Shown piece by piece: positions 20,551 to 58,571 of a stretch of 64,000 bases of DNA; within the stretch, counting starts at the first letter, position 1, and each line of letters opens with the position of its first letter. Source of the stretch: Chloroflexaceae bacterium (GTDB taxonomy: Bacteria; Chloroflexota; Chloroflexia; Chloroflexales; Chloroflexaceae). The translations under genes and the position numbers were made by a program. The notes beneath the pieces are model-generated. The model was given only the letters and a program-made list of their open reading frames with translations. It was not told the origin of the DNA and ran no database searches. Location: contig JANQID010000038.1 in NCBI GenBank assembly GCA_028282325.1, forward strand, positions 1 to 64,000, read 5' to 3'.

Positions 20551-21900
20551 TCAATCTAGCTCGAACGCCTTCGGATTGGCCTGATCCGGGGATATAAGAT
20601 GGGGCAGATGACGACAGATCGTCGCAACTGTTTGCGCAGTATTACCGTTATGCGCCACACAGATAGCCTCCGAACCACAGTCATCAATCTGAACCTCCGC
20701 GCCCTCGGTTGTGAGCAAAAGGAGACGAGTATGCTTGGAATGCTGCAATAGTTCACGCCATGATTGCTGCCCCATAGCATCGGCAATGATCATCGCTGGA
20801 TCGGGCGCACGCGCAAGCAGCGTATGGGCGGCAAGCATATCTGTGGCTATCAAAGATTGATAGCCAATGTGGCTCAAAGCTTCGGTTAGATCAGCTTGAA
20901 TGGCTACATCCGTCGTAAGAATAAGGACGCTCGTTCGTTGCCGTCCACGCCGATCGTTCAACTGAGGCAACATTGGAGTACGACGACGATCGATCTCGTA
21001 TGTGCTGCCCGCAATCAGTTTAGCGCGCGACTTAAGTTCTGCAACTACTTTGCTGATCTCATCGATGCTGGCGAACGTCCTTGTGTACGAACTTACCACT
21101 GCTATCGATAGGCTGAGCAACCCAAATCGACGCACGACGCCCTGTCGATCCAATCCCTGCAAATAGCCCCGCTCCACATCTTTCAGGTCATAGAGATCGG
21201 CGACACGAGCATGGAAAGAGGTGATCATTCGCTTGCACAGATCTTCGGCATCAGGTCTATAGTGAATAATAGCAAAATCATCGCCGCCAATATGGCCAAG
21301 AAAATCGGTTTGCGGCGCAACTTCAATCAGGACGTTGGCAAGCAAATGGATCGCCCGATCTCCGCGCGCAAAACCATAGGCATCGTTAAACGCTTTGAAA
21401 TTATCAAGATCTACATACAGTAGCGCAAATTTTTTATCCTGGTCGACAAGACGTTCAATCTCCGCCTGTAATAAAACATTTCCCGGCAAACCGGTGAGCG
21501 GATTACGCACCGGAATCTGAGCCGCCCGGCGCAAATGCCCTCGGATCCGAGCCAGCAAGATATCAACGTCATAGGGTTTGACAATATAATCGTCGGCCCC
21601 GCTATCAAAGCCGGTGACAACCTCTTGCGATTCACCGCGAGCGGTGAGGATGATCATTGGCAAATGCGCCGTACGCGAGTCGTTGCGTAGTTGACGGATA
21701 GCCTCGAACCCATCCATTCGCGGCATCATCAGATCGACTAATAGCAGATCAGGTGTCTCGGCCTGCGCCATGCGGACGAGTTGATCGCCATTATGAGCGA
21801 TGAGGACATCATATCCCTCGCCAACAAGCGCTATACGCAGGAGTGTACATATCTCCGGGTCATCATCGGCCAGGAGTATTCGGCTTGATTGAGAAGACAT
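20551..21900 (-). CDS. response regulator with REC, GGDEF and C-terminal pseudo-receiver
   Basis: A 449-residue putative diguanylate cyclase. The N-terminal receiver (residues 5-120) has ADDD, the phospho-acceptor Asp in LLLVDLMMPRMDG, and the Lys in IVKPYD. The GGDEF domain (about 140-310) starts at NPLTGLPGN, has DLDNFKAFND and the active-site variant GGDDF, a known functional form of GGDEF. A family-specific insertion, YLQGLDRQGVVRRFGLLSLS, follows. The last 120 residues look like a second receiver without the conserved Lys. The start at 21900 (MSSQSSR) is directly before the receiver. A paralogue with the same layout lies at 32851-34176. The product c-di-GMP is inferred from family. Confidence 0.9.
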   Translation of the reverse strand: MSSQSSRILLADDDPEICTLLRIALVGEGYDVLIAHNGDQLVRMAQAETPDLLLVDLMMPRMDGFEAIRQLRNDSRTAHLPMIILTARGESQEVVTGFDSGADDYIVKPYDVDILLARIRGHLRRAAQIPVRNPLTGLPGNVLLQAEIERLVDQDKKFALLYVDLDNFKAFNDAYGFARGDRAIHLLANVLIEVAPQTDFLGHIGGDDFAIIHYRPDAEDLCKRMITSFHARVADLYDLKDVERGYLQGLDRQGVVRRFGLLSLSIAVVSSYTRTFASIDEISKVVAELKSRAKLIAGSTYEIDRRRTPMLPQLNDRRGRQRTSVLILTTDVAIQADLTEALSHIGYQSLIATDMLAAHTLLARAPDPAMIIADAMGQQSWRELLQHSKHTRLLLLTTEGAEVQIDDCGSEAICVAHNGNTAQTVATICRHLPHLISPDQANPKAFELD

Positions 21901-22360
21901 CTGCAACCCTGTTACTTGTAATACATGGAAATTGACAGCAGGATATGCATCAAGACGCGTAGATATTCTACCAACATCGTATGCGGCTATAGCATACCAT
22001 AGACGCCTTGAATCTGCACGCCTTTCAAAACCCAATTTGCCAAAGCCGCCAAATTGCAAGCGACTAATCATACTTTTTGGACGGCAGATTGCTGCGCATC
22101 TCATCGCGGTACGAAGCGCCATCAACAATGATATTTACGACATCGCGCAATCGAACGGTATAACGCCCATAGTTGAAGGAGCTCTGCGTTCAGCACAATA
22201 ACCCGCAACGCGGTCATCTGCGCTATAATGGATAGCGAACTGGCGGTTCTGTGCTACGCGACCCCACCATAAGCGAAGCATTGAGCTCTAGCTCACAATT
22301 AAACTCCCTGGCGCCATTATGGAGAAGCGCCGTTTATTCAAAGGATCGTGACTACGTTTT
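21901..22360. other. intergenic region between divergent GGDEF and helicase genes
   Basis: This 460-nt spacer contains no credible gene. Its right half holds the helicase promoter candidate and a leader of about 130 nt with a weak stem (GGCGC...GCGCC near 22310-22330). Long leaders are common for cold-induced DEAD-box helicase genes, but no known cold-shock element was recognised. Confidence 0.4.
22221..22237 (+). promoter_or_regulatory. -10 box overlapped by a small inverted repeat, upstream of DEAD-box helicase
   Basis: TATAAT lies at 22224-22229 inside CGCTAT-aatgg-ATAGCG (arms 22221-22226 and 22232-22237). The overlap of a palindrome with the -10 box is compatible with an operator, though the arms are short. 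Confidence 0.35.
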
Positions 22361-32850: not shown

Positions 32851-34176
32851 CTACTGCGGCGGAGGCGCGAGGGTATCGATGGCGCCGCCAAGCGCTTCGT
32901 CGGTGAATGGTCTTTCCAGACAAACGTTCACGTTATGCTGAGACGCCTGCATACACTGATCGGCCCGCGTGGCAATTGCAATCACCGGCAGCAGCGGAGT
33001 TTTTAAGCCCGCCCCGCGACATAGCTCCCAAACCGATTCACCGAGATTAGCGTCAATGATGATAAGATCAATCGGCAGATCGCGGGCTAATAGCGCGTGA
33101 GCGTCGGTTAGAGAGGACACGGCGAAATGGCGATAGCGCCGCGATTGCAATATATTCAGCACACGTCGATTCAGATCGGCGTCGCCGCTGACCAGCAACA
33201 CTGCCGGCAAATCAGCGCCCCGACGATCCGGTTCGATCGCTTGTTGTACTATGCGTGAGTCTATTCGGTAAACACTTCCCGGGCTGGTTTTGGCAAAATG
33301 TTTCATCTCGGCGGCGGCGCGGCTCATTTCTTCATAATTATTAAAGTGCCGATGTACGTTGGTTACACCGCCAACCGCGATTGAGGTAATCGGAAATTGA
33401 CGCTGCACACCCTGCCGGTCAACGCCCAGGAGACACCCCCGCTGTAAATCGTCACGATCATAGAGATTGCGCACCTGTGCATCAAATCGCTCAATCACCA
33501 GTTCACACAAAGCATTGACAACTTCCGGCGTCGTGATTATCACAAAATCATCGCCGCCAATATGAGCGATAAAATCTTTGCCGCTCCCGAAGCGCGCCAC
33601 GCTCTCAGTCAACACATCGGCAACCATTTTGATGACACGATCGCCACGGGCAAAGCCGTAAGTATCATTAAACGCTTTGAAGTTATTCAAATCGAAGTGG
33701 AGCAGAGCGAAATGTTCCGTTTGTTTGAGACGGTGTTTGAGTTCCTCGGTGAGCAAGATGTTCCCCGGCAATCCCGACAACGGGTTATTGACCGGTCGTT
33801 GCGCCGCCCGACGAAGATGGCTCTTGATGCGAGCCAGCAATTCGGGCGTATCGAACGGCTTGGTAATATAGTCATCGGCGCCTGTCTCGAAGCCGGTCAC
33901 CACATCATCGATAGCAGTCTTCGCTGTCAGAATAAGCATCGGGATATGCGCCGTTCGCGTGTCATTACGCAATTGACGGATCGCCTCGTACCCATCCAGT
34001 TGCGGCATCATTAAATCAACAAGCAAAAGATCGGGGATGTATTCCTGAGCCATACGAACAAGCTGATCGCCGTTGTTGGCAGTCATCGTTCGATATCCGC
34101 GCTTGCTCAACACAGCATCAAGAAGCTCGCGGATCGAGGAATCATCGTCAGCGATCAAAATGACTTGCGTATTCAC
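32851..34176 (-). CDS. response regulator with REC, GGDEF and C-terminal pseudo-receiver (paralogue)
   Basis: A 441-residue putative diguanylate cyclase with the same order as the protein at 20551-21900. The receiver has ADDDSSIRE, the Asp in LLLVDLMMPQLDG and ITKPFD. The GGDEF domain has NPLSGLPGN, DLNNFKAFND (first metal Asp kept) and active site GGDDF. The CLLGVDRQGVQRQFPITSIA insertion and a terminal receiver-like domain with IIIDANLG follow. No ATG is suitably placed. The GTG at 34176 (VNTQVILIADDD) is preceded by GGAAAG and starts right before the receiver. It lies between the TPR gene and the SPFH gene on the same strand. Confidence 0.88.
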   Translation of the reverse strand: MNTQVILIADDDSSIRELLDAVLSKRGYRTMTANNGDQLVRMAQEYIPDLLLVDLMMPQLDGYEAIRQLRNDTRTAHIPMLILTAKTAIDDVVTGFETGADDYITKPFDTPELLARIKSHLRRAAQRPVNNPLSGLPGNILLTEELKHRLKQTEHFALLHFDLNNFKAFNDTYGFARGDRVIKMVADVLTESVARFGSGKDFIAHIGGDDFVIITTPEVVNALCELVIERFDAQVRNLYDRDDLQRGCLLGVDRQGVQRQFPITSIAVGGVTNVHRHFNNYEEMSRAAAEMKHFAKTSPGSVYRIDSRIVQQAIEPDRRGADLPAVLLVSGDADLNRRVLNILQSRRYRHFAVSSLTDAHALLARDLPIDLIIIDANLGESVWELCRGAGLKTPLLPVIAIATRADQCMQASQHNVNVCLERPFTDEALGGAIDTLAPPPQ

Positions 34177-34360
34177 AATGCCGTGCTTTCCACAGGCGCC
34201 GCTTCTTGTCTCAGGAACGGCCAACGTCAGCGCATATGACTCAGGCGAAAGGTGGTAAGAAGCCAAAGATGCGAGGTAATGTCGCCGGATGGTTTCCCGC
34301 ACACTCGCCGCAGGTGCAGCAGATATCCACATTTGCCGGACGAATGTGCGAGAAACCTTG

Positions 34361-35506
34361 TTACTCTTTCTGGGCTTGAGGCGTGCCAACTTCAACTTGC
34401 AATCGCGAAGGGCGGCCGAGTTCGTTCAATTCCTTAAGCGCATTGCGGATAAGCGCTTGCTTATCATCGATTGAGAGATCGACTTCTTGATCCTGAAGGG
34501 CCTTGATCCACTCGATAATCGCGTAAACGCGTACATCAGCCTCAGCTTCGCCCACCAGCCGGGCGCGCGTCGCCGCACGCTCGGCTTCAAGGCGTGCATC
34601 TTCGGTATCCGCATTGATCTTATTCTGCCGCTTGTAGACACGAAGACGCCTCTCCTCCTGCTCGATACGATCAAAGCTGACGCCCACTATCTCCAACCCC
34701 AGCGGTTGCACTGCTTCTTGCAACTTTTCGCGCGTCAAGTCGAGCAGCCGCTCGCGATCCGTGCTGGTATCGATAGCTCGCTGGGTCTCCGCATAAACGA
34801 CATCACGCAAAACCCCATCAGTTATTGGATGCATATACTTGTGCAACAATTCTTCCCAAAAGCGCTGATCTTGCATCGCTTTGAAGCGATCCATCTTGAG
34901 CGACTGGGCCACTTCGTTGGCGAAGCTGATACGATTAGGATAATCGGGGCCCGAGTAGACCTTCATCGGCATATCTCTGTTAATTTTGTAGACAACATTC
35001 ACCAGCACATGCTTAACCGTCTGGATAGCTTTCGTCTCAATGTCATTAACAGGCACATCAGTCGTGAGGTTGTAGAGGGGCATCATCGCAAGGGCACGCT
35101 CAAAGAGCGGCAGCGGGCGCCACACGCGCGCTGTTCCGACTCTGAACTCCAACCCTGAAAGTCGCTTGGCGATAAGCAGCGTATTGGCCGGAACAAACAA
35201 GGTACTTTGCAGAAGCACCCTGACAATAGCGTAGAACGCAAACGCCCACAAAATCGCCACTAGAGATGCCGCGACTTCATTCAGCGACTGCCTGGCGTAG
35301 AGAAAGACTGCCATCGAAGAGATCAGCATCACAAACACGCCAAGCATAAAGAGTTCGCGCGCCGTACCCGAAAACGCAATAACTATACCGATAAACAGGA
35401 TGAAAACGATCAATCCAAGCAGAAGAAGATTCGGCTGGAGGAGATAAATAGCCGCCAGAGACGCAAACAGCATCCCGGACAGAGCCGCAGCGATGAACGA
35501 ACGCAT
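34361..35506 (-). CDS. polytopic membrane protein with SPFH/band-7 domain
   Basis: A 381-residue protein. About four hydrophobic helices occupy residues 5-115. An SPFH/prohibitin-type domain follows (about 118-270, NTLLIAKRLSGLEFRVG through VNDIETKAIQTVKHVLVNVVYKI). A charged helical segment rich in Glu/Arg/Ala (RRLRVYKRQNKINADTEDAR) comes next, as in flotillin-like coiled coils. The start at 35506 is supported by GGAGG 7 nt upstream; a longer frame lacks one. SPFH proteins organise membrane microdomains and often assist proteases. A specific role here is unknown. It is unusual in having a polytopic rather than single-pass anchor. Confidence 0.82.
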   Translation of the reverse strand: MRSFIAAALSGMLFASLAAIYLLQPNLLLLGLIVFILFIGIVIAFSGTARELFMLGVFVMLISSMAVFLYARQSLNEVAASLVAILWAFAFYAIVRVLLQSTLFVPANTLLIAKRLSGLEFRVGTARVWRPLPLFERALAMMPLYNLTTDVPVNDIETKAIQTVKHVLVNVVYKINRDMPMKVYSGPDYPNRISFANEVAQSLKMDRFKAMQDQRFWEELLHKYMHPITDGVLRDVVYAETQRAIDTSTDRERLLDLTREKLQEAVQPLGLEIVGVSFDRIEQEERRLRVYKRQNKINADTEDARLEAERAATRARLVGEAEADVRVYAIIEWIKALQDQEVDLSIDDKQALIRNALKELNELGRPSRLQVEVGTPQAQKE

Positions 35507-50262: not shown

Positions 50263-52485
50263 ATGACACGCCTACTTAGCATATTGGCCCTCTGCGCCGT
50301 TGTACTCATTCTCCCGATCATCACACAGCGATATGCTGCGCAAGCGGACAGCAATCTCACCTACGAAACGACGATGGTTGTTCCCGACTCGGGCAATGCG
50401 AAAGTGCCCAAGGCGCACACGTTCGGCAACGAGGTTTATGTCGCCGCAAACCCCGACGATCGAGCAACGCTCTGGTCGAAGCTGGATACTGCAAATAGCT
50501 TCCCGCCCCGCACCAACATTGGTTTCCGCGGCAGTCAGCCCCAATGGGAAACCGCTTCCGTCGCCACCGGCGTTGATGGAACAATCTATTTCGCCTGGAT
50601 CAATAATGAAGAACAGGCGATTTATTTTCAGCGCAAAACGCCGACCGGGGGTTGGGAATCGCGCGTCACGGTTCAACAAGGCGGCTTCTCATCTCCCGGC
50701 GCGGTCAAGCTCGACATTGGCGCCACATCTACGGGCATAATTTTTATTGCCTGGTTTGAGAGCGGACAACCGTTTCGTTACACACTCTCGACAAACGGCG
50801 GCGCATCGTGGGCGGCAGCCCGTGATCTCGGCGATATTCCGGCCTACCTGAGCACGCCGGTCATTGCAACCGGACCGAGCGGTCAGGCGATGATCACGTT
50901 TATGGGTGCAACCGATCCGCTTCAGATCTTCGCCGGAATCTGGAATGGCAGCGACTTCGTTATCGAGCAAGTCACTCCGCTAAATTTGGATTACGCCGAT
51001 CCGACCGCCGCAATTGATAGCAACGGCCAATACTTCGCCGCATTCCGATCCATTGGCAGCGGCATCTACTTCGCAGCACGCCAGGGCGACAACTCATGGG
51101 CGACCGCTTTTCTCGCCAGCGGAGATGCCAATGGCACCGTCGCCATTAGCACAGATACCGAGAACAACCTGCACGTAGCCTGGGCCAACAACAATCCAAC
51201 CGATCTCTACTATACCTTCAAGAGTCCAACCGGTGATTGGGAAGGCCCACTCCGTGTTGATCGCAACGGACGCGATTACTTCTTCGCTCGGAATGCAGCC
51301 TCGCTTGGCGCACGCTCCTATGGCCATGTCGTGCTTGAACAATTCGACGGCGGCAATTTGAGCACACGCTATTTCCGTTTCTCGGCAAACACAGGGCTTG
51401 TGTATGCTGATCCGCAAATCGAAAGCGGCGCCAGTGCAGTCGGCGGCGATGCGACTTCTGTGAGCGTCTCATTTGAGAATGTCTCCGGCGAGCCAAATCA
51501 GATTCGCTGGCATTGGGGCGCAGAGCCAACAGATGCTGATACATGGCAAAACTACGCTAACCCTATTTCAATAGCGCTTCCATCAACGCTGAACACAGCG
51601 GGATGCACGCCATTAACGCTCTATACTGAAGTGCACAATACCAGCAAGCCAGATAAAACATATGTTGGCTCAGATAATATCAGCATCGATAGCAGCGTTC
51701 AGGCGTCCATCCGCGCGGTGAATCCCTACATTGGCGACAAGATGAGCGCTGCCGCGCAATTGTTGGCAGCCAGCGACGGCGCCACCGATGGACACCCCGA
51801 CTATACCCGCGACAAGGAGTTCTACTTCGAAATCCAGGGCGCCAGCGAATGTAGCGGATTAAAACAGTTCGCTCTCGGTAAAGATATCGACAACTTTGGC
51901 ACGCCGACGACCATCTCGAACAACGTCTACGCCGATGTTGTATCGCTTCCTCAACCTGATACTGTTTCCGAGGGACCCAGTACGTTTGCTATTCGTGTCA
52001 CCGACAATCTCAGCAACTCTGAGAACATCTCTCGCACGCTGAAATACGACCCGATAGCGCCGACCCTGAATCTGTCGGGTACGCTCACGATCACCAGTTC
52101 TGTTGACGCAACCATTATCACCACCCTCGATTTCAGCGGGGTTGATGTCTCGGATAATCTCTACCCGAACGGTTTCTGGGGCGCGTGGATCGCGAACAGC
52201 CGCACGGAAGCCGCCAACCCGCTCACCGACGCCGAGTTGGTCTGGCATCCAGTAGAAGTGGACAATCCCGGATCAAGCTTTACCATCGAGAACTGGAGCC
52301 TGGCGAGCGGTCTGTCGGAGAGCGACCTGACGGAGGAGGACGCTGACGGAAGCGGCTATACCTTCTACGTCTATGTGCGGTATTTTGACGGCGCCGGTAA
52401 TCTCACCGACGGTTGGACCGAAGCAACTATTGAGCTGAGCGAGATAGCCCGGCCTAAAGTTTACTTGCCAATGCTCTGGAAATAA
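50263..52485 (+). CDS. secreted beta-propeller-like surface protein
   Basis: A 740-residue exported protein. The signal peptide is MTRLLSILALCAVVLILP with probable cleavage after AAQA (about residue 28). Residues 30-430 contain repeated short blocks of the type GVDGTIYFAWI, GIIFIAWFESG and NNLHVAWANNN, with Ser/Asp/Asn-rich loops, resembling sialidase/BNR-like propeller blades. Residues 450-725 look like beta-sandwich (immunoglobulin-like) segments with TFAIRVTDNLSNSENISRTL. The protein ends PKVYLPMLWK, a tail type seen on many exported Chloroflexota proteins. No catalytic residues are recognised; binding or display is more likely than hydrolysis. It has its own strong promoter. Confidence 0.75.
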   Translation: MTRLLSILALCAVVLILPIITQRYAAQADSNLTYETTMVVPDSGNAKVPKAHTFGNEVYVAANPDDRATLWSKLDTANSFPPRTNIGFRGSQPQWETASVATGVDGTIYFAWINNEEQAIYFQRKTPTGGWESRVTVQQGGFSSPGAVKLDIGATSTGIIFIAWFESGQPFRYTLSTNGGASWAAARDLGDIPAYLSTPVIATGPSGQAMITFMGATDPLQIFAGIWNGSDFVIEQVTPLNLDYADPTAAIDSNGQYFAAFRSIGSGIYFAARQGDNSWATAFLASGDANGTVAISTDTENNLHVAWANNNPTDLYYTFKSPTGDWEGPLRVDRNGRDYFFARNAASLGARSYGHVVLEQFDGGNLSTRYFRFSANTGLVYADPQIESGASAVGGDATSVSVSFENVSGEPNQIRWHWGAEPTDADTWQNYANPISIALPSTLNTAGCTPLTLYTEVHNTSKPDKTYVGSDNISIDSSVQASIRAVNPYIGDKMSAAAQLLAASDGATDGHPDYTRDKEFYFEIQGASECSGLKQFALGKDIDNFGTPTTISNNVYADVVSLPQPDTVSEGPSTFAIRVTDNLSNSENISRTLKYDPIAPTLNLSGTLTITSSVDATIITTLDFSGVDVSDNLYPNGFWGAWIANSRTEAANPLTDAELVWHPVEVDNPGSSFTIENWSLASGLSESDLTEEDADGSGYTFYVYVRYFDGAGNLTDGWTEATIELSEIARPKVYLPMLWK

Positions 52486-53708: not shown

Positions 53709-54599
53709 TCAGGATTTATAGCGCAGCCTAGTAGCATCCGGGCGTGCCTCAATGACCTCAACCTGATCGGCAAACTCTTCCCGCAACAGATCAGCGATCT
53801 TAAGCGAGGGATCGTGATCAAGAGCAAGAACCAGCAATTCATGTTCAAAAGAGATCAATGTAGCCGACATAACAGCTTCGTGCTGAGCTATACTGTCCAT
53901 AAGCTCTGATGCCTGGCTGATGCTGCCGACATTCTCTACATGCAACATAGACCCGTCCTCGCTCTGCTCCTCACTGACGAGAGATTGGTCTAAGCTATCG
54001 CTCTGGGTCTGGTTCTTGGCAGGCGAAGGCATAGCAGCGCTTCGAGACAGTTCCGGTTGCGGCGAAGCTGACCCCAGCAACCCCTGAAGAGATTGGCGCA
54101 AAACGCCTAACTGCTCACTAAGTTGTCGCGTTTCCTCTAACACCCGATCGCGATCGGCGTAAGCTTCGGTCAGGAAACGTTCATGCTGAACGTTGGCCTC
54201 AGCCATCTGGCGTTCGATTTTTTCATTCGCCTGTTGCTGCTGCTGCTGGAGATCTGCATCATGACGTTGGCGCTCGCGTTTCAAGCGATCCTGGTGACTC
54301 AACCGCTCCTCTGCCATCGCCACGCGCATCGTTTGCAGTTCCTGGCGTAATGTATCAATTTCACGTTCGAATATTTCGCGCTCGCGTTGGTAGCGCGCGA
54401 TCAACTGTTCCGCTTCTTCCTCCATTTTGCGAGTGAGTTCACTCGCCAGTTGCAACATATGCTCGATCCCGTTCTGAACTTGTTGTTCGGTTTCCCGATA
54501 CAATTCAAGTCGTCGTGTGGCCCATGCGCGAAAGGTCTGCTCGGCGGCATACTCACTATCCGGCTGAATTGATTGCGGTTTTTCTTGATGCGTTGACAC
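53709..54599 (-). CDS. long coiled-coil protein of unknown function
   Basis: A 296-residue protein dominated by a coiled coil (about residues 20-180; Glu/Arg/Gln-rich, with a QQQQQQ run near 118). A Ser/Gln-rich linker follows (185-225). A small C-terminal domain (about 230-296) may be alpha/beta ([24 protein letters not shown]). No signal peptide or membrane helix. It is the third gene of a minus-strand operon with two membrane proteins, 11 nt downstream of the second. The family is not recognised; a structural or scaffolding role is a guess. Confidence 0.7.
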
Positions 54600-54610
54600 G
54601 GGCGCTCCTC

Positions 54611-55177
54611 CTACTGATCGATCTGCTTTCCACCGTTTCCAAATATCGTCACCATCGCTCGTCCTATTGCTACTAGGAGTGCGGCAATAATTAAGAGGGC
54701 ATATTGATTTCCGGAAGACAGAGCGCCTGCCGCAGGAATGGTCTCAGTTGGCTGCGGCGTCTCTGCCTTATCAGGCGTTGGTTTGCCAACATCTGGTTCA
54801 CGTGTCACTGTCGCCGTCAACGTTGGTCGTTGGGTGGACGTTGATGTCACAGTCGGCGGTTGCGTCGACGTTGGAGTCTTGGTTGGCGATCGTGTCGATG
54901 TCGGCGCCGCGGTAGCGCTCGCTCCAATCGTAGCTGTCAACTCAGCTCTGATAGTCGCCAGCGGCACGCTCGTCAGCGGCATACGCGTCGGGTCGATAGT
55001 TGGGCGATCCAGGTTGCGTCGACCTATATGTATGCGACCGCCCTCTGCTTCACTGCCTTGCCCGCCGGCAATCAAGATCGCAGCTTGTGGCAATATGACC
55101 AGCAAAACGATTCCCAGGAACAGCGTGATAGCTTGCAGAAGCACGCCTGTACAACCGTGCCGGAGTGTTCGTCTCAT
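54611..55177 (-). CDS. Thr/Pro-rich protein with two terminal membrane helices
   Basis: A 188-residue protein. An N-terminal helix (about 11-37, LLQAITLFLGIVLLVILPQAAIL) and a C-terminal helix (about 158-178, YALLIIAALLVAIGRAMVTIF) enclose about 100 residues of low-complexity Thr/Pro/Ser sequence (TSTRSPTKTPTSTQPPT). The latter is typical of glycosylated or wall-spanning linkers in Chloroflexota. It overlaps the end of the CARDB gene by four bases (ATGA). The family is unknown. Confidence 0.7.
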   Translation of the reverse strand: MRRTLRHGCTGVLLQAITLFLGIVLLVILPQAAILIAGGQGSEAEGGRIHIGRRNLDRPTIDPTRMPLTSVPLATIRAELTATIGASATAAPTSTRSPTKTPTSTQPPTVTSTSTQRPTLTATVTREPDVGKPTPDKAETPQPTETIPAAGALSSGNQYALLIIAALLVAIGRAMVTIFGNGGKQIDQ

Positions 55178-56628
55178 GAACGTGGGCTTTCCTCAACAAC
55201 CAGGATGAACGGCTCCGACAAGTTGTTTTCTTCGTTGCCCTCGGCAACGGCGCCGGCGTCGGCGCTGCCATACGAGTCAACAAGCGCATAGAGCTGAAGG
55301 GTTTCGGCTTGCTCAAAGCGTAACAAGTTCGATCGGGCGGGATCGGCATCCAACGAATCGAGCGTTATCGACTCTCTTGCGGGCAACCCATCCACCATCC
55401 AGGTTGCGCCATAGGAACTAATGACATCCCAGGGTTGATTGACAACTGGTCTTGCGCGCGGCGCAGCGTAGAGATCGATCCAGAACGGTATGGTAATATC
55501 GCTATCGCTCAAATTACGAACACGGATACGTATATTGATGACATTCCCGGCATTGGATGAAGATGTCACCACATCGATCACTTCCACGACCAGATCGGGA
55601 AGTTCGACAACCGCGGCCGCGGCCGTTTGGGTCTGATCGATACGCTGGGCCGTGGCAGTAGGCTCCGATTCACTCGTGGTGTTCTCCGCCGTAGAGATAG
55701 CGGTCACCGCCGGGCTGCTTACCGGCGCGACTGATGCCTGAGCAGCGGATTCCTGCGTCAGCGTTGGTTCGATTGCGCTATCCGTCGCCGCCGCTGCGCC
55801 GGAGACAGCATCGGTCGGGGTTGCGGTGATCTCAGGACTGCGGTTCATTAAGAAACCAACCACAACGACCAGCAATACCAAAAGTAACGCTACAGCTACG
55901 ATTGGCAGTACGGGCAGCCTGCGACGCGATGCAGAGATAGTTTGATACGATGGATCGAATAGATCGGCTTCCGGCAGATGAGCAGAGAGTGTTTGCACAT
56001 CGCTGTCGGTTGGCGGCGGCAGAAGTTCCTGGTAGGGCGCTGTCGGTTCCGATGCGGTAAACGATTGTTCTTGATCAGTCTGATCATCAGCGATCGCACT
56101 ATTCCATACGCCTGGCGCAACATCGGGTGATGTACCAGCCATAGAAGCAGCGACATCATCCGCTGATTGTGTGCCATCGGCTTCTACGACATCTGAAGTA
56201 ATCGCTTCCGGCATCGCCGCGCCGGGTTGACCCTCCAATGGTTCGGGAGATCGTTCCGACGTCGTTTCAAGCTTCGCACCGATCAGAAGATGATGCAATC
56301 GATCCGCATCGCAGCGTATGCGCTCAGAAACAGCGAAACCATCCTGGGGCAAAGCCTGATCGCCATCAAGCAGAACTAATCGTGGACGAGGCGTAAGAGC
56401 GTGATAGCTGGTCAGAATCGCGGTGAGACCAACATCCTGATTGCACAGCAGCAGATCTGTGTGGAGATCTTCAGACCGCGCCAGGAGTTCAGTTACGGTC
56501 GGCAGTACAACAATGCGGTGGCCTGATTGTTCTACGGCATGACCAAACAGGCGCAATTGACGCACCGTCGGGTTGATCAGTATCGCAACCGGATACTCAG
56601 TAGAACGAGCTTGTCTGTATTGATTCAC
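55174..56628 (-). CDS. pseudo-receiver, membrane helix and CARDB-like domain protein
   Basis: A 484-residue protein with three parts. Residues 10-125 have an alpha/beta, receiver-like pattern (VAILINPTVRQLRLFGHAVEQSG, LLLCNQDVGL, RLVLLDGDQ) without a canonical acidic pocket. An acidic disordered linker is followed by one transmembrane helix (about 245-268, LPIVAVALLLVLLVVVVGFL). A Thr/Ala-rich external stretch leads to a CARDB-like beta-sandwich (about 355-475, PDLVVEVIDVVTSSSNAGNV and EENNLSEPFIL). GTG 56628 is taken as the start (TTG 56631 is possible). It is the first gene of a three-gene operon. Confidence 0.72.
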   Translation of the reverse strand: MNQYRQARSTEYPVAILINPTVRQLRLFGHAVEQSGHRIVVLPTVTELLARSEDLHTDLLLCNQDVGLTAILTSYHALTPRPRLVLLDGDQALPQDGFAVSERIRCDADRLHHLLIGAKLETTSERSPEPLEGQPGAAMPEAITSDVVEADGTQSADDVAASMAGTSPDVAPGVWNSAIADDQTDQEQSFTASEPTAPYQELLPPPTDSDVQTLSAHLPEADLFDPSYQTISASRRRLPVLPIVAVALLLVLLVVVVGFLMNRSPEITATPTDAVSGAAAATDSAIEPTLTQESAAQASVAPVSSPAVTAISTAENTTSESEPTATAQRIDQTQTAAAAVVELPDLVVEVIDVVTSSSNAGNVINIRIRVRNLSDSDITIPFWIDLYAAPRARPVVNQPWDVISSYGATWMVDGLPARESITLDSLDADPARSNLLRFEQAETLQLYALVDSYGSADAGAVAEGNEENNLSEPFILVVEESPRS

Positions 56629-57113
56629 CAAAACAGCCTGCCCCTTCGGGATGAAACATTTGAAGGTCTGAGCATATCTGCTCTATGCAACGGCGATAGC
56701 GCTCGGTCTCGTTCGGCCCTCATTGATAGCTCTCACTGGATACGGACGTCTGCATTGCAGGACGCACATGGTGAAAGGACTTGGAGTATAGATCTCCGCC
56801 AAAAACCTCGCCGCTTCATCCCACGCCATGTGACAATATCGTCACAAAGATCGAGACGCACCAATTACGTCCAGAATTGCAAGTCTTTGCACTCTTCGTT
56901 TGGCTCCCACATCGCATAAGCCCCGTGAATTATAACAGATATCAGGGGTAGCTTCGTACGTGAATGACACGGCAGAGATGAAACACGGCTGCAGTCCAAG
57001 GCTCTTACCAAGAGATAAAATCATCGATCGCCTTTTGACATAAACACACATAAGATACCGGAAATACCGAAGAAATTCCATACAACTAAAACAAGCCCTC
57101 AATATGACTCTAC

Positions 57114-57998: not shown

Positions 57999-58571
57999 AT
58001 GGAACAGCGAACAATGCAATCTGAGAGCCTGCTGTTTATTGGAGATCCTGATCACCGGGAACAGACTGTATTGGATTCTCTCGGCGGTATCGTACGCGTA
58101 AAGATTCTCGCCAACGCCGAATCCGCTTATCAGGAGATAGCGAGCTGTTGTCCAGACTTCCTCATTTTCTCCGCTCACCAGCAAAACACATGCACCCTTC
58201 GTTTGTTTCGCCAACTCAAGCGGATGAAACGGCTCTGCGTTGTGGTGTGTCACGAGGGTTCGCTGCAAGCTTTCATAGGCAAAGGATATTGCCATCGCTG
58301 CTGGCTCCCCAAGAGCATTCCTGGGGCAACGGTTTTGCAGAACTGGAAGCGTCAGATGCTCGATCTAAGCGATGCCGAAGATCAACGTCGCATAGCTGAA
58401 GCCACCATGATGCAACGTTACAGGGCGTATGGAAAAGTCCACAATAGCGTGCAAAATAGAAGATGGGGCGTGGTGCATAAGACGATCGGGATGCTTCATC
58501 TGCGATTCACTGGCGCACAAAAGGATGCTATGATACCGAAACTCGTTCAGCGTAGCGTTCCAGCGCAGTGA
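57999..58571 (+). CDS. pseudo-receiver-like hypothetical protein
   Basis: A 190-residue protein. Residues 10-85 have the beta-alpha order of a response-regulator receiver (SLLFIGDPDHREQTVLDSLGG ... CPDFLIFSA), but the phospho-acceptor Asp is replaced (FLIFSAHQQ) and the rest of the pocket is missing. The C-terminal part is basic and Cys/His-containing (GKGYCHRCWLPKS, then Arg/Lys-rich), with no known domain. AAAGGA lies 13 nt before the ATG; a second ATG at 58014 is possible. The next gene begins 60 nt later. The role is unknown; perhaps a decayed regulator. Confidence 0.55.
   Translation: MEQRTMQSESLLFIGDPDHREQTVLDSLGGIVRVKILANAESAYQEIASCCPDFLIFSAHQQNTCTLRLFRQLKRMKRLCVVVCHEGSLQAFIGKGYCHRCWLPKSIPGATVLQNWKRQMLDLSDAEDQRRIAEATMMQRYRAYGKVHNSVQNRRWGVVHKTIGMLHLRFTGAQKDAMIPKLVQRSVPAQ

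What the first reader, a model, noticed from the sequence alone, without database searches (positions are those of the whole stretch)
53709..56628. Three-gene operon: pseudo-receiver/CARDB membrane protein, Thr-Pro-rich two-helix protein, coiled-coil protein
The genes are tightly coupled (4-nt overlap, then an 11-nt gap). The first spans the membrane with a receiver-like cytosolic part and a CARDB-like outer part, the second looks like a glycosylated spacer, and the third is a long soluble coiled coil. Together they suggest a cell-surface or cytoskeleton-linked structure. I do not recognise any described system with this set; this is the best candidate for an undescribed system here.
Basis: inference. 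Interest (0 to 1): 0.6.

Follow-up and report, generated by a model that had tools for sequence, protein, structure and literature searches.

The report
Envelope-spanning scaffold operon in Chloroflexales
Three neighbouring genes that are inherited together in some filamentous green bacteria appear to build a scaffold reaching from a long rod-like protein inside the cell, through the membrane, to the cell surface; flagellated relatives carry the core pair beside their flagellum genes, so it may mark where surface machines are placed.

Summary
The operon is real and its genes are inherited as a unit. Gene A is receiver-like, one transmembrane helix, then a CARDB sandwich. Gene B is a Thr/Pro-rich surface protein. 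Gene C is a 160-residue helix, a disordered linker and a small ferredoxin-like domain. The trio occurs in the window and eight other Chloroflexales genomes; across 82 genomes of the order, B and C occur in exactly the same nine. Gene order is C-A-B in relatives and A-B-C in the window.

The core pair is older than the order. In two other families A-like proteins (receiver-like, one TM, Ig-like domain, LysM in one family) directly precede C-like genes; in one family the pair lies immediately upstream of flgC-fliE-fliF. DivIVA is the Pfam model matched by most C-family members; three pass its cut-off, but the window's C does not match it, and the DivIVA lipid-binding N-terminus appears absent.

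Best reading: an envelope-spanning landmark or scaffold in which a DivIVA-like rod is tethered by a pseudo-receiver membrane protein. Conservation and anatomy are shown; complex formation, localisation and function are inferred. No described system with this set was found.

The parts
55174..56631 (-). Gene A, 485 aa: receiver-like N-domain, disordered linker, one TM, Thr/Ser/Pro-rich linker, CARDB-like sandwich
   Evidence: start TTG 56631 or GTG 56628
56278..56589 (-). receiver-like (pseudo-receiver) domain of A, residues 15-118; phosphoacceptor Asp replaced (Asn here)
   Evidence: hhalign 90.7% against 17 receivers over 105 columns; AF2 beta-alpha order
55846..55908 (-). transmembrane helix of A, residues 242-262, preceded by RRR (N-terminus in the cytosol by the positive-inside rule)
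   Evidence: hydropathy 3.4; AF2 helix 242-262
55192..55599 (-). CARDB-like beta-sandwich of A, residues 345-480, outside the cell
   Evidence: Pfam CARDB in 5 of 8 orthologues, best E 0.0012; 3idu TM-score 0.67-0.69, VIA Z 9.6
54611..55177 (-). Gene B, 188 aa: N-terminal hydrophobic stretch (signal peptide or anchor), conserved motif, Thr/Pro-rich stalk (25% T, 16% P), C-terminal TM anchor
54926..55006 (-). conserved B motif RPTIDPTRMPLTSVPLATIRAELTATI
   Evidence: conserved in all nine B proteins; invariant R58, P59, T60, P72, T75, A78, L80, T81, A82
53709..54599 (-). Gene C, 296 aa: long helix 13-175, disordered linker 177-214, C-terminal domain 217-294
54333..54542 (-). C-family signature (WxxRRLxLY...E.EA..L..R), the region that is DivIVA-like in relatives
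   Evidence: A11 profile hits in f1, f47, f57 and weaker f37, f51, f8; DivIVA hits overlap it in relatives
53718..53951 (-). C-terminal ferredoxin-like domain of C (beta-alpha-beta-beta-alpha-beta-beta)
   Evidence: AF2; weak Foldseek matches to ferredoxin-like folds; profile A7
57999..58571 (+). Gene D, 190 aa, small receiver-like protein, divergent from A; conserved near the trio in 5 of the 7 trio genomes of family f1
   Evidence: tblastn E 1e-14 to 1e-17 between the window protein and L029, L032, L034, L046; alignment A6

Best explanation
The operon encodes an envelope-spanning landmark or scaffold. C is a soluble, oligomerising, DivIVA-like rod on the cytosolic face whose ferredoxin-like tip makes protein contacts. 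A is the membrane tether: its receiver-like domain, which has lost the phosphorylation site, binds C or clients without phosphorylation, and its CARDB domain contacts the surface layer, wall glycans or B. B is a Thr/Pro-rich surface stalk added in Chloroflexales. In flagellated relatives the A-C pair sits with basal-body genes, so I infer that it positions or anchors a surface machine at poles or septa; the Chloroflexales carriers have no FliF, so there it would serve septum-located structures such as Tad pili, gas vesicles or septal channels. Shown: the genes, their co-inheritance, domain anatomy, relatives and neighbourhoods. Inferred: A-C contact, localisation and the client machine.
For: B and C occur in exactly the same 9 of 82 genomes of the order, with A between or beside them. 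Purifying selection on all three. A-like + C-like pairs in families f47 (L070, L071) and f57 (L104, L106, L107, L108, L113, L122), with CarboxypepD_reg and, in f47, LysM outside. C followed by flgC-fliE-fliF in L105, L107, L108, and flagellin next to A in L104. FliF present in 8 of 10 f47/f57 genomes holding C against 45 of 400 in the phylum sample. DivIVA is the Pfam model matched by most C-family members (11 of 18), and C-family genes are the only DivIVA hits in the six genomes with hits among 18 searched. AF2 models, CARDB fold, receiver profile. Independent receiver-TM protein beside a C-like gene in f51, L162.
Against: No complex prediction, localisation or phenotype. The window's own C does not match DivIVA and lacks a recognisable lipid-binding domain. 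Coiled-coil profiles can match by composition. Flagellar adjacency is seen only in one family, so the genomes are not independent. Other proteins with the same C-terminal domain sit by MshEN-glycosyltransferase genes or by a histidine kinase and response regulator, which fits signalling or polysaccharide roles as well.
Confidence: 0.45

Rival explanations
1. Signal-transduction module: A reports an outside condition (wall stress, surface contact) through its CARDB domain to the receiver-like domain, and C is an adaptor passing it to kinases or regulators; there is no fixed structure.
For: Receiver-like domains in A and D; C-like genes directly upstream of a GAF histidine kinase and NarL-type regulator in f37; C-like gene followed by a true receiver in G140.
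Against: No kinase or output gene beside the trio in Chloroflexales; the acceptor Asp is lost in A; a long helix plus a Thr/Pro stalk is more than an adaptor needs.
Confidence: 0.25
2. Surface polysaccharide or sheath scaffold: the trio organises a membrane polysaccharide synthase or anchors an extracellular coat, with B as a glycosylated coat component.
For: Proteins with C's C-terminal domain lie just upstream of 6xMshEN-GT2 synthases in three other families; a GT2 gene lies about 3 kb from the trio in the window; B is mucin-like.
Against: No conserved glycosyltransferase neighbour was established for the trio; those distant proteins lack the C signature and the A partner.
Confidence: 0.15
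3. Gas-vesicle or aquatic-lifestyle accessory factor.
For: All seven trio genomes of family f1 have gvpA; in Ca. Viridilinea gas vesicles cluster at septa beside unexplained filament sheets (PMC7332563).
Against: Both f4 genomes with the trio have no gvpA, and many gvpA genomes lack the trio.
Confidence: 0.07

Closest known systems
DivIVA / Wag31 (PF05103)
   Same: Cytosolic coiled-coil scaffold; the coil region of C relatives matches the DivIVA profile above its cut-off in three genomes
   Different: No lipid-binding N-terminus recognised; extra ferredoxin-like C-terminal domain; partner membrane protein in the operon; the window's C is below detection
FimV / HubP polar landmark
   Same: Outer Ig-like and LysM domains, one TM, a cytosolic part; A' of f47 has this set (PMC12918733)
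   Different: Opposite order along the chain; receiver-like domain instead of acidic repeats and TPR/FimV domain; the window's A has CARDB and no LysM
FrzS of Myxococcus xanthus
   Same: Pseudo-receiver combined with a long coiled coil in a polar motility protein (PMC1974792)
   Different: One soluble polypeptide in FrzS; here two proteins, one of them membrane-spanning
CARDB domain (PF07705), P. furiosus PF1109
   Same: Same fold as the outer part of A
   Different: The window protein itself is not matched by the Pfam model

Membership tests
DivIVA | profile match to PF05103 above cut-off | tested here: not met
   window C: no match (none in G000); relatives in f51 and f37 pass
DivIVA | N-terminal lipid-binding domain | tested here: not met
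   DivIVA hits in relatives begin at profile position 24 or later; no such segment seen in the window's C
DivIVA | localisation to poles or septa | not testable with these tools
   needs microscopy
Phosphorylatable response regulator | receiver fold | tested here: met
   hhalign 90.7-94.3% over the domain; AF2 order fits, but confidence is moderate and alpha-4 is unclear
Phosphorylatable response regulator | phosphoacceptor Asp at the end of beta-3 | tested here: not met
   replaced in all eight Chloroflexales orthologues
CARDB | CARDB fold | tested here: met
   3idu TM-score 0.67-0.69, Z 9.6, rmsd 3.5, 101 residues; other Ig-like sandwiches score similarly
CARDB | Pfam gathering score | tested here: inconclusive
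   5 of 8 orthologues match weakly, best E 0.0012; window protein not listed
FimV/HubP | outer LysM domain | tested here: not met
   no LysM match in the window's A; present in f47 relatives
FimV/HubP | C-terminal TPR/FimV domain | tested here: not met
   no such Pfam match in A
FrzS | pseudo-receiver and coiled coil in one soluble protein | tested here: not met
   two separate genes, and A has a TM
Sortase substrate (B) | LPxTG-type motif before a C-terminal TM | tested here: not met
   xPxxG present but the Thr position is A, V or S; the genome does encode four sortases
Anti-phage defence | PADLOC family match | tested here: not met
   only weak coiled-coil matches

The most novel reading that the evidence does not exclude
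A Chloroflexota-specific class of cell-landmark system: a DivIVA-like rod that has lost its own lipid anchor and is instead held at the membrane by a phosphorylation-independent receiver protein that grips the wall or surface. It first served flagella and was re-used, with a new surface protein, in non-flagellated multicellular phototrophs to mark septa.
Probability: 0.25. Interest if true: 0.75.

Novelty: new variant of a known kind. Interest (0 to 1): 0.55.

Why it matters
Filamentous Chloroflexales have septal channels, septum-anchored pili and internal filament sheets; cyanobacterial septal-junction genes are absent from their genomes and the filament sheets are of unknown function (PMC7332563). 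A conserved trio joining an intracellular rod to a surface domain is a concrete candidate for such structures. The finding also points to an unnamed DivIVA-like family in Chloroflexota with its own membrane partner, and to pseudo-receivers, whose mode of action is an open question (PMC12632262).

Tried and rejected
Gas-vesicle linkage: suggestive in one family, contradicted in another. Sortase sorting signal in B: the Thr position is not conserved. Defence system: no PADLOC support. Phage origin: only weak PHROGs hits of unknown function. Recent foreign DNA: GC3 of the trio (0.52-0.54) is low but inside the window's range. A hit of the C-terminal profile in L072 is AtpA and spurious. PDB sequence searches with A, D and the two parts of C gave nothing usable. 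Foldseek on C gave only general ferredoxin-like folds, led by ribosomal proteins. VIA-align on A listed no receiver, but its rows barely covered that part, so this is not evidence against it. Promoter- and terminator-like sites are no more than chance.

Full report
Observation. The three minus-strand genes exist as described: A 56631/56628-55174, B 55177-54611, C 54599-53709, with a 4-nt A-B overlap and an 11-nt B-C gap. C's GTG start has an AGGAGG sequence just upstream. No Pfam family reaches its cut-off in any of the three.

Relatives in the order. Searches with A and C and loci fetched from those genomes show the trio in Candidatus Chloroploca (three genomes), Oscillochloris-labelled MAGs (three, one split over two contigs) and two Chloroflexi MAGs of another family (f4); names come, and Chloroploca is placed in Chloroflexales, Oscillochloridaceae. 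Gene order there is C-A-B, in the window A-B-C. A profile of B finds full-length B in exactly the nine genomes that carry C, out of 82. Nine identical picks of 82 would by chance be about 1 in 3x10^11 (my arithmetic, not corrected for kinship). dN/dS is 0.08-0.34 for A, B and C. A fourth gene, D, is near the trio in five of the seven f1 carriers; it is missing at the locus of Chloroploca sp. Khr17, was not found on the cut contigs of G022, and is not seen in the two f4 loci.

Anatomy. AF2 gives C as one helix 13-175, a disordered linker and a domain 217-294 in the order beta-alpha-beta-beta-alpha-beta-beta; A as a receiver-like domain (moderate confidence), a TM at 242-262 and a sandwich at 347-479. 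The sandwich matches the CARDB structure 3idu, and five of eight orthologues match Pfam CARDB weakly. A profile of A N-termini aligns with 17 receivers over the domain at 91%, and at 94% when f47 and f57 relatives are added; a first attempt with four receivers gave only 49%. The acceptor Asp is replaced in all eight orthologues. The TM is preceded by Arg residues, placing the receiver inside (inference from the positive-inside rule). B has an N-terminal hydrophobic stretch followed in most orthologues by an AxA-type site (seen by eye in the translations; no signal-peptide program was run), then the motif RPTxxPTxxPL..PxxTIRAELTATA, a Thr/Pro stalk and a C-terminal TM. The hydrophobic period of C's helix is 3.6-3.65 in seven homologues, with less power at 3.5, suggesting a near-straight, non-heptad assembly (inference).

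Wider family. The C-terminal domain profile and then the whole C profile reach other Chloroflexota families. In f47 (L070, L071) and f57 (L104, L106, L107, L108, L113, L122) a C-like gene is directly preceded by an A-like gene; those read in full have a receiver-like domain, one TM and an outer CarboxypepD_reg domain, plus LysM in f47. In f57, flgC-fliE-fliF follow C in L105, L107 and L108, and a flagellin gene adjoins A in L104. FliF is absent from all nine Chloroflexales carriers, present in both f47 and six of eight f57 genomes, and in 45 of 400 genomes of the phylum sample. The N-terminal signature of C gives strong hits only in f1, f47 and f57 in that sample and weaker ones in f37, f51 and f8 among others; profile comparison links the two groups at 97%. 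In f51 a small receiver-like protein with a C-terminal TM lies divergently beside the C-like gene.

DivIVA link. The f51 relative of C passes the DivIVA cut-off. Scanning 18 whole genomes with DivIVA, all hits (in six genomes) are C-family genes, three above cut-off, and none occur in the Chloroflexales carriers tested. DivIVA is the Pfam family matched by most members (11 of 18) of a C-family alignment, best E 1.1e-8. The window's C itself does not match, and hits begin at profile position 24 or later, so the lipid-binding start is missing. I therefore call the family DivIVA-like, not DivIVA; coiled-coil matches can be misleading and this link is the softest part of the argument. The same C-terminal domain also occurs beside MshEN-glycosyltransferase synthases and beside a histidine kinase with its regulator, so it is probably a general docking domain.

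Interpretation. The simplest reading of a cytosolic DivIVA-like rod without its own lipid anchor, repeatedly paired with a receiver-TM-surface protein, is that the membrane protein tethers the rod. FrzS shows that a receiver without a phosphorylation site, joined to a coiled coil, can direct polar placement (PMC1974792), and FimV shows that outer Ig-like plus LysM domains can help fix a landmark (PMC12918733). This is a likeness of working, not membership. The client in Chloroflexales is unknown; pili, gas vesicles and septal channels all sit at septa (PMC7332563). Literature searches found no description of such a system, within an open-access library only.

Noticed in passing
window 57999-58571 (+): Gene D, a small receiver-like protein conserved near the trio in family f1 but missing in Chloroploca sp. 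Khr17 and not seen in the f4 loci.
   Followed up: partly
L114 1920-5921, L118 1900-5943, L121 2466-6311: Large proteins with six MshEN domains fused to a GT2 glycosyltransferase, each just downstream of a protein with C's C-terminal domain.
   Followed up: partly
L160 5711-10326 and similar loci L161, L163, L164, L165: C-like gene followed by a GAF histidine kinase (and a NarL-type regulator in L160 and L165) in family f37.
   Followed up: partly
L109 6127-7854, L110 564-2297: Second C-family paralogue in f47, with a zinc-ribbon-like N-terminus.
   Followed up: no
L111 2667-4595: Receiver fused to an Rce1-like membrane protease and an SH3 domain, next to a C-like gene.
   Followed up: no
window 20551-22128 and 32851-34395: Two proteins that each carry two receiver domains.
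   Followed up: no
window 50263-52485 (+): 740-aa secreted-looking protein without a Pfam match above cut-off, close to the trio.
   Followed up: no
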